From an uncultured Dehalococcoidia bacterium (GTDB lineage: Bacteria > Chloroflexota > Dehalococcoidia > Lucifugimonadales > UBA3495), in the NCBI GenBank assembly GCA_951812625.1, contig CATOSP010000001.1, positions 1 through 64,000 of the forward strand: 64,000 bases of DNA, in the 5' to 3' direction. The notes under the pieces were generated by a model. That model saw only the letters and a list, made by a program, of their open reading frames with translations, did no database searches and had not been told where the DNA came from. Position 1 is the first letter of the stretch. Each line of letters opens with the position of its first letter. Of this stretch, positions 26,160 through 27,785 are shown piece by piece. Made by a program: the position numbers and the translations under genes.

Positions 26160-27785
26160 TCACGGACCCGTGTACAACTCTGTGTCCGGGTGGAACTGGA
26201 ACCAACCAAACCAGAATGACATGTGGGTGGGTATCCGCGCGAACTTCTCCGACTCGTCTGCCCCGTTGACGAGGAACTCCTCAGTCACGTGCCATGTGCC
26301 ACCTTCGGTGTCCGATATCAAGGGTGGGATCCCAGGGTAATCGCCGCTGTCCTCTGGCTCCAGCTTGAACGACCTGTCCCTGCGGTAGTAGGCCCTTGCG
26401 CCCTGGCTCGCATCCGACCCCAACACCACTATCTCCTCGCCTCCCACCGCGTCATTAACTATCCGGCGCTCCTGCAACAATGCGGAGGGGTAGGCCTTGG
26501 AGCTGTCGTTCACCTGTACCCCCAGCACGACGTCCTTCGCTTCAAGCCGGTCGTCCCGGTCAGGGACCGGGAACATCGTCTCAGGCGCGTTGAAGTAGTC
26601 GTAGTAAATCGCCTGCGGGTCCTCCTCCGGCACATAGAATTTGGCAGGATACACGCCTGTCTCCTGGTCGAGCACCGTGGTGTCGGGATGAAGCTCCAGC
26701 CATTCCTCCCACGTGGTCAGGATGACCGGAAAGAAGTCGAGCTTTATCCCGGAGTCCCATAACGGCCCTATGACAGGTTCGCTGGTGAGCTGATTCCAGA
26801 GCGAGTTGGTCAGCCGATCGTACATGACCTTGTTGCTGCGGTACAGCATCCCAGACGTGCCGAATGTGGTTGGCTCTCCGTTGATTCTGGCGGAATACAC
26901 GATTCCGGTGCCGCAGAGCGTTCAATAGGCCAGGGCGATGGGTTCGCCCCCCAACACATCGTTGGCCATCTCATGGGCGTTCACGATGCGCAGCGGGTAC
27001 GCCCTGTGCTCTCCGTTGATTGACACGCCGAATACCCGGTCGCCCGGCTGCAGGTAGTCCTGCTCGCCCGCCAACACGACCGGGGCATTCTGAAGGTCAG
27101 GTATCCCGTCGGGCAGGACACCTCCCCACGCGATCTCGGATACGTTTATCCGTGAGCCCTGCGCCGCCGGAGCCAGGAACTCGCCGAACCTGGGGTCGAT
27201 CAGGCTCATGAACGCGCCCTTCCACTGCACGTACCCATTGGGGGGAACGTACTCGTCGGCGTTCATGCCCAGCCACTCCATCCACTCATGCCAGGCGTCC
27301 CACACGTTACTGGTCTCCCGGCCCGTTATAGCCGAGATGGCCATGTCGGTCTCTTCCACGAGGTCCGGGTCACCGAAGAAGCGGAGCATCTCGATCATGA
27401 CCGGGACCATCGACCTGTCGTTGTTGGCGACAGAGAGTGTGATGGCCTCGCGTGTGTCATTGGGGTTTTGGTTCCAGGCCGAGAAGAACAGGTGCATGTT
27501 CGTAGTGGAGTCGTAGCCCGTGGCGGGAGTAGGTACTTGCTCGGATGGCGGCTCGGGGGTTGTAGTCGAGGCCGGCACGGCCGTGGCAGTCTGAGTCGGC
27601 AAAGCTGTCGTCGTGCTATCGACCGGTGAGGTTGGAGTCGGCGCAGCGGTCGCAGTCTGTGCAGGTGAAGCCGTTGGTATGCTGTCAACCTGTACGGTCG
27701 GCTCTGCCATACCGGAACAGGCCAAAGCAACAGCCACTATAAACCCGGCAGTCAGGGTTCCGAAATAACGCCAGAACTTAGTCAC
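26160..27785 (-). CDS. DUF3179 lipoprotein, candidate selenoprotein (in-frame UGA at 26922-26924, AYUTLCGT)
   Basis: ORFs 26922-27929 and 26160-26900 are in one frame separated only by TGA at a conserved Cys position of DUF3179 (...GEPIALAY[TGA]TLCGTGIVYSARINGE...); GTG start at 27785 preceded by GGAAGG; lipobox VALACSG. Confidence 0.75.

What the first reader, a model, noticed from the sequence alone, without database searches (positions are those of the whole stretch)
26160..27785. DUF3179 lipoprotein with UGA in place of the CxxC cysteine (UxxC): possible undescribed selenoprotein family
Seen: on the minus strand ...GEPIALAY-TGA-TLCGTGIVYSARINGE... is open on both sides in the same frame; TGA is at 26922-26924. 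DUF3179 proteins normally read Y-C-P/T-L-C-G-T here, so the UGA sits on the first Cys of a CxxC motif (AYUTLCGT). The protein has a lipobox (VALACSG), so it would be an exported Sec-lipoprotein. A random nonsense mutation landing on that codon in an otherwise intact 541-codon gene is unlikely, and a second UGA=Cys gene lies about 11 kb away.
Basis: partly seen in the sequence, partly recalled or inferred. Interest (0 to 1): 0.92.

Follow-up and report, generated by a model that had tools for sequence, protein, structure and literature searches.

The report
DUF3179 selenoprotein with bacterial SECIS hairpin
An apparent stop codon in the middle of this bacterial surface-protein gene is almost certainly read as the rare amino acid selenocysteine; the protein family was already on the list of known selenoproteins, but it turns out to be common, and present in several copies per genome, in this little-studied branch of Chloroflexota bacteria.

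Summary
A 541-codon gene (27785-26163, minus strand, plus a TGA stop) has one in-frame TGA at 26922-26924, on the first Cys of the DUF3179 CxxC motif (AYUTLCGT). It is very likely a true selenocysteine codon. The genome has selA, selB, selD (itself with a Sec-UGA) and a tRNA-Sec(UCA). Its two other DUF3179 genes carry the same TGA. In the order, 91 of 150 listed DUF3179 matches have exactly one internal TGA, 1 has TAA and none TAG; all 60 TGA genes I inspected from relatives' genomes have it at the U of UxL(C). A hairpin 20 nt downstream fits the bacterial SECIS model. Its five codons are invariant in 18 TGA orthologues (protein identity down to 48%), and its stem covaries between paralogues (5 of 6 pairs with double changes). 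No Cys homologue has it in that register (0/37, against 65/80 TGA genes). The claim of an undescribed family is wrong: DUF3179 (UxxC/T) is listed as a known selenoprotein family in 2022 and 2026 reviews. New here is the scale in Dehalococcoidia, with several Sec paralogues per genome. Function is unknown; an exported selenol/thiol redox protein is the best guess. The "second UGA gene" is real: an OsmC-like selenoprotein (UGA at 38686).

The parts
26160..27785 (-). DUF3179 lipoprotein gene, 541 codons including one Sec codon, final TGA stop at 26160-26162
   Evidence: GTG start aligns with ATG starts of homologues
26922..26924 (-). in-frame TGA = selenocysteine 288, first position of UxxC
26891..26907 (-). 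core of the bacterial SECIS hairpin: CGGAAU-CGUGU-AUUCCG, apical loop 20 nt after the UGA
   Evidence: coordinates counted from the UGA
26913..26915 (-). second motif residue, Cys291 (TGC)
27711..27785 (-). signal peptide / probable lipobox (VALAC-SG), followed by a Pro/Thr-rich linker
   Evidence: inspection only
26181..27110 (-). DUF3179 domain (PF11376), interrupted by the UGA
38503..39498 (+). second selenoprotein gene of the window, OsmC-like, Sec-UGA at 38686-38688; start codon provisional

Best explanation
The gene encodes an exported lipoprotein of the DUF3179 family in which UGA at codon 288 is decoded as selenocysteine. SelB with Sec-tRNA(Sec) is recruited by a SECIS hairpin about 20 nt downstream (CGGAAU-CGUGU-AUUCCG). 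Sec288 and Cys291 (UxxC) form the reactive pair, most likely for a thiol/selenol redox reaction outside the cytoplasmic membrane. Supported by sequence evidence here: the recurrent UGA/Cys exchange, the conserved and covarying hairpin, and the decoding genes. Inferred: actual Sec insertion in cells, export and lipidation, and the redox function. The confidence given is for Sec insertion; for the redox role it is about 0.55.
For: Sec machinery in the same genome: selA E 1e-135, selB 1.5e-103, selD 8e-117 with its own HCAG-U codon, tRNA-Sec with UCA anticodon; the tRNA-Cys found is GCA. Recurrence: 17 of 27 species-level relatives have TGA at the same codon and the rest TGC; both other DUF3179 genes of the genome have it; in the order 91 of 150 listed matches have one TGA, 1 TAA, 0 TAG (counted by hand); 60 of 60 inspected TGA genes from relatives' genomes have it at the UxL(C) site. 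SECIS: codons +6 to +10 invariant in 18 orthologues, the only such stretch in the gene, against mean synonymous identity 0.54; 26 distinct sequences, 100% paired, covariation 0.491 vs 0.111 shuffled, 0/500; same helix in 65/80 TGA genes against 0/37 Cys genes. The hairpin meets the published bSECIS rules for loop, stem, spacing and G in the loop. Genomes with TGA copies have full-length SelA in 22 of 23 listed cases, the exception being a 69%-complete genome.
Against: No protein-level or read-level data. In the window sequence alone the hairpin is only moderately unusual (P about 0.02 against synonymous shuffles) and folding energy over 36 nt is unremarkable. Two distant TGA copies (L112, L113) lack the hairpin in this register. 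The redox role rests on the UxxC motif only; no relative has a known function or structure, and Sec could serve metal binding instead.
Confidence: 0.94

Rival explanations
1. The TGA is a sequencing error or a nonsense mutation in a decaying gene.
For: The genome is a multi-contig assembly, 95% complete; no reads were seen.
Against: The same codon is TGA in dozens of independent genomes, almost never TAA or TAG, with no second stop; the hairpin behind it is conserved and covaries.
Confidence: 0.01
2. UGA is decoded as Cys (or Trp/Gly) through an alternative code or a suppressor tRNA, without selenium.
For: All homologues without TGA in the 27 loci have Cys there.
Against: TGA ends ordinary genes, including this one. 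Of the tRNAs examined, only tRNA-Sec has a UCA anticodon and tRNA-Cys is GCA (about 40 of 48 genes). SelA/SelB/SelD are complete, and the conserved hairpin points to SelB.
Confidence: 0.03
3. UGA is a regulated stop: a short protein without the CxxC half is the product and the downstream part is not translated, or only under high selenium.
For: Public gene calls such as P0121 end exactly at this UGA, and UGA-Sec decoding is leaky in general (established knowledge).
Against: The downstream 253 codons stay conserved as a DUF3179 domain; the truncated calls are an expected annotation artefact.
Confidence: 0.02
4. The selenoprotein is real, but Sec288/Cys291 bind a soft metal (Hg, Cu, Cd) instead of doing redox catalysis.
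For: Several known UxxC/CxxU selenoproteins are tied to metals (table in PMC13188914); nearly invariant His, Glu, Asn and Asp lie 12-17 residues before the motif.
Against: No metal gene next to it, and no conserved neighbourhood in orthologues.
Confidence: 0.25

Closest known systems
DUF3179 domain-containing selenoprotein (PF11376, UxxC/T), Zhang and Gladyshev 2007 as cited in PMC9312934 and PMC13188914
   Same: Same Pfam family, same Sec position at the first Cys of CxxC, same status of unknown function.
   Different: The reviews list one representative accession and do not mention Chloroflexota; here the Sec form is the majority among listed matches in a Dehalococcoidia order, with several paralogues per genome.
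OsmC-like selenoprotein (Sargasso Sea, PMC1088965)
   Same: A second gene in this window, with UGA at the conserved position and a stable downstream hairpin.
   Different: Unrelated family; peroxidase-type protein without a signal peptide in this gene as read.
Bacterial SECIS element (bSECIS model, PMC13188914 Fig. 2A)
   Same: 6-bp stem, 5-nt loop with G in its second position, 20 nt after UGA, MFE -9.4 for 45 nt.
   Different: The loop CGUGU and stem register are specific to this family; a minority uses a slid stem with an 8-nt loop.
Thioredoxin-like UxxC selenoproteins
   Same: UxxC motif.
   Different: The predicted DUF3179 structure (pLDDT 95) has no match in the PDB at E <= 0.001, thioredoxin folds included.

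Membership tests
Bacterial selenoprotein (Sec-UGA) | in-frame UGA aligned with a conserved Cys in homologues | tested here: met
Bacterial selenoprotein (Sec-UGA) | selA, selB, selC, selD in the genome | tested here: met
Bacterial selenoprotein (Sec-UGA) | bSECIS: 3-9 nt loop, 4-16 bp stem, G in the first two loop positions, 16-37 nt spacing, MFE <= -7.5 | tested here: met
   (loop CGUGU, 6 bp, 20 nt; -9.4 kcal/mol for the 45 nt, whose best fold on its own differs from the conserved hairpin)
Bacterial selenoprotein (Sec-UGA) | selenium found in the protein | not testable with these tools
   needs Se-75 labelling or mass spectrometry
DUF3179 (PF11376) | match over the Pfam gathering score | tested here: met
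   267 bits against 27
Known DUF3179 selenoprotein family (UxxC/T) | Sec at the first Cys of the CxxC motif of DUF3179 | tested here: met
   the published representative sequence itself was not aligned
Exported lipoprotein | signal peptide with lipobox Cys | tested here: inconclusive
   ALAC-S, -3 residue Ala; no signal predictor on hand
Thioredoxin-fold oxidoreductase | thioredoxin fold | tested here: not met

The most novel reading that the evidence does not exclude
DUF3179 is a widespread extracytoplasmic selenol enzyme family with a fold not seen in solved structures, and this branch of Dehalococcoidia (SAR202-like by its relatives) has expanded it into several Sec-dependent paralogues per genome, with at least five Sec/Cys switches in the tree built here, making it a significant and overlooked selenium user.
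Probability: 0.4. Interest if true: 0.55.

Novelty: new member of a known kind. Interest (0 to 1): 0.36.

Why it matters
Gene callers cut these proteins at the UGA, so at least 91 genes in the genomes sampled from one order are likely missed or shortened in public data. The family is an under-studied exported selenoprotein with Sec and Cys forms side by side, a clean natural comparison of what selenium buys. The covarying SECIS set is a good benchmark for SECIS models in a phylum that the reviews read here do not mention.

Tried and rejected
Codon-usage and motif scans for other UGA-interrupted genes in the window missed the OsmC gene, found later by reading frames near 38.7 kb; their top hit at 29182 is the stop between two CoA-transferase genes in one frame. 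Folding energy alone did not separate TGA from TGC genes; conservation and covariation did. PDB sequence searches gave only chance matches, and the fold search of a confident model gave no match at E <= 0.001; weak hits to Rieske ferredoxins (E 0.2-1.5) were not pursued. NCBIfam gave no family. Neighbour genes are not kept in orthologous loci, so context gives no functional clue. The original 2007 paper is not held. Two attempts at the pair count failed on string length. A frame-picking slip misread three loci (L114, L126, L159); one search corrected it.

Full report
What is there. On the minus strand, 27785-26160 reads as one gene of 541 codons plus a TGA stop, interrupted only by a TGA at 26922-26924 (residue 288). 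Read through, it matches DUF3179 (PF11376) at E 2.7e-79 over residues 226-535, so the domain spans the TGA. The TGA stands where homologues have the first Cys of C-[PT]-L-C, a nearly invariant position, as is the second Cys.

Decoding machinery. The same genome (4.03 Mb, 5 contigs) has full-length selA, selB, selD and a tRNA-Sec with UCA anticodon. selD itself carries an in-frame TGA at HCAG-U. The tRNA-Cys found reads GCA and no other UCA tRNA was seen among the roughly 40 genes checked out of 48. The gene itself ends in TGA, so TGA is not globally reassigned.

Recurrence. Both other DUF3179 genes of the genome have one TGA, at the same site: VITYUPLCNS and AVTWUPLCFT. Of 27 related loci from other species, nearly all labelled Chloroflexota/Dehalococcoidia and one labelled SAR202, 17 have TGA and 10 TGC at the site, none with a stop in the flanks checked. 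Over 118 genomes of the order, 71 have DUF3179; of the 150 matches listed, by my hand count, 91 have exactly one TGA inside, one has TAA, none TAG, 58 none. I fetched 60 TGA matches from class and order: all 60 have the TGA at the UxL(C) site. In the class, 22 of 23 listed genomes with a TGA copy have full-length SelA; the exception is 69% complete. SelA is common in the class, so this agrees but is not strong proof. Outside the class, most listed Chloroflexota copies are without stops, with a few single-TGA cases. A tree of 77 rows needs at least five changes between the TGA and Cys states, four forced by well-supported branches.

SECIS. Twenty nucleotides after the UGA lies CGGAAU-CGUGU-AUUCCG. 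In 18 TGA orthologues, down to 48% pairwise protein identity, codons +6 to +10 (GGA ATC GTG TAT TCC) never vary, while mean synonymous codon identity in the gene is 0.54; no other stretch of the gene reaches this. The Cys orthologues vary there. Paralogues use other letters with the same helix: in 26 distinct sequences all six pairs are always formed, five show double changes, and the covariation score is 0.491 against 0.111 +/- 0.026 in shuffles and at most 0.054 when slid. Shuffles do not correct for relatedness, but the slid control keeps it. The helix in this register is in 65 of 80 TGA genes; ten more have it slid by one with a longer loop and one in another register; none of 37 Cys genes has it in the main register and four have a helix in one of the alternatives. 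It meets the published bSECIS rules (PMC13188914). The hairpin of the window gene alone is only P about 0.02 against synonymous shuffles, and the best fold of its 45 nt on its own is a different one; the strength comes from comparison.

Function. The N-terminus looks like a lipoprotein signal followed by a Pro/Thr linker, so the domain is probably outside the membrane. The model is confident (pLDDT 95, pTM 0.92), but nothing in the PDB matches at E <= 0.001 and no solved relative exists by sequence. Conserved residues besides U/C288 and C291 include a His-Glu and an Asn-Asp 12-17 residues upstream. One homologue, P0109, has lost both motif cysteines (YSVLSG), which hints that they work as a pair. 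From this I infer a selenol/thiol redox role, with metal binding as the main alternative. Neighbouring genes (luciferase-like monooxygenase, CoA-transferases) are not shared by orthologous loci.

Known or new. Reviews of 2022 and 2026 list DUF3179 (PF11376, UxxC/T) among known selenoprotein families, from the 2007 Olavius symbiont study. Only three papers in the held library mention DUF3179 at all, and those on SAR202 or Dehalococcoidia found with selenocysteine terms do not appear to treat it (titles and abstracts only). So the family is known; its prevalence in this lineage appears unreported in what I could search.

Second gene. OsmC-like selenoproteins are a known family (PMC2398784).

Noticed in passing
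window 38503-39498 (+), UGA at 38686: OsmC-like gene with in-frame UGA and a strong downstream hairpin; known selenoprotein family, 11.8 kb from the DUF3179 gene. The frame continues well past the OsmC domain (331 aa read-through), so the C-terminal part is unexplained.
   Followed up: partly
L043 (selD, G000:C2:793402-794325): selD itself has a Sec-UGA (HCAG-U) with a hairpin of -18.7 kcal/mol.
   Followed up: yes
P0121 (public protein, close orthologue): The public gene call of a close orthologue stops exactly at the Sec-UGA, leaving a truncated lipoprotein.
   Followed up: partly
L112, L113 (G027, G039): A distant pair of TGA copies with UPLCGSGVAFER lacks the common hairpin; they may use another SECIS form.
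   Followed up: no
G399, G436, G444, G487, G508, G522: Several genomes of one Chloroflexota family outside the class have DUF3179 matches in two pieces, the first with one TGA.
   Followed up: no
window 27940-30630 (-): Two adjacent CoA-transferase family III genes in the same frame, separated by a TGA at 29182 that looks like read-through but is a gene boundary.
   Followed up: yes
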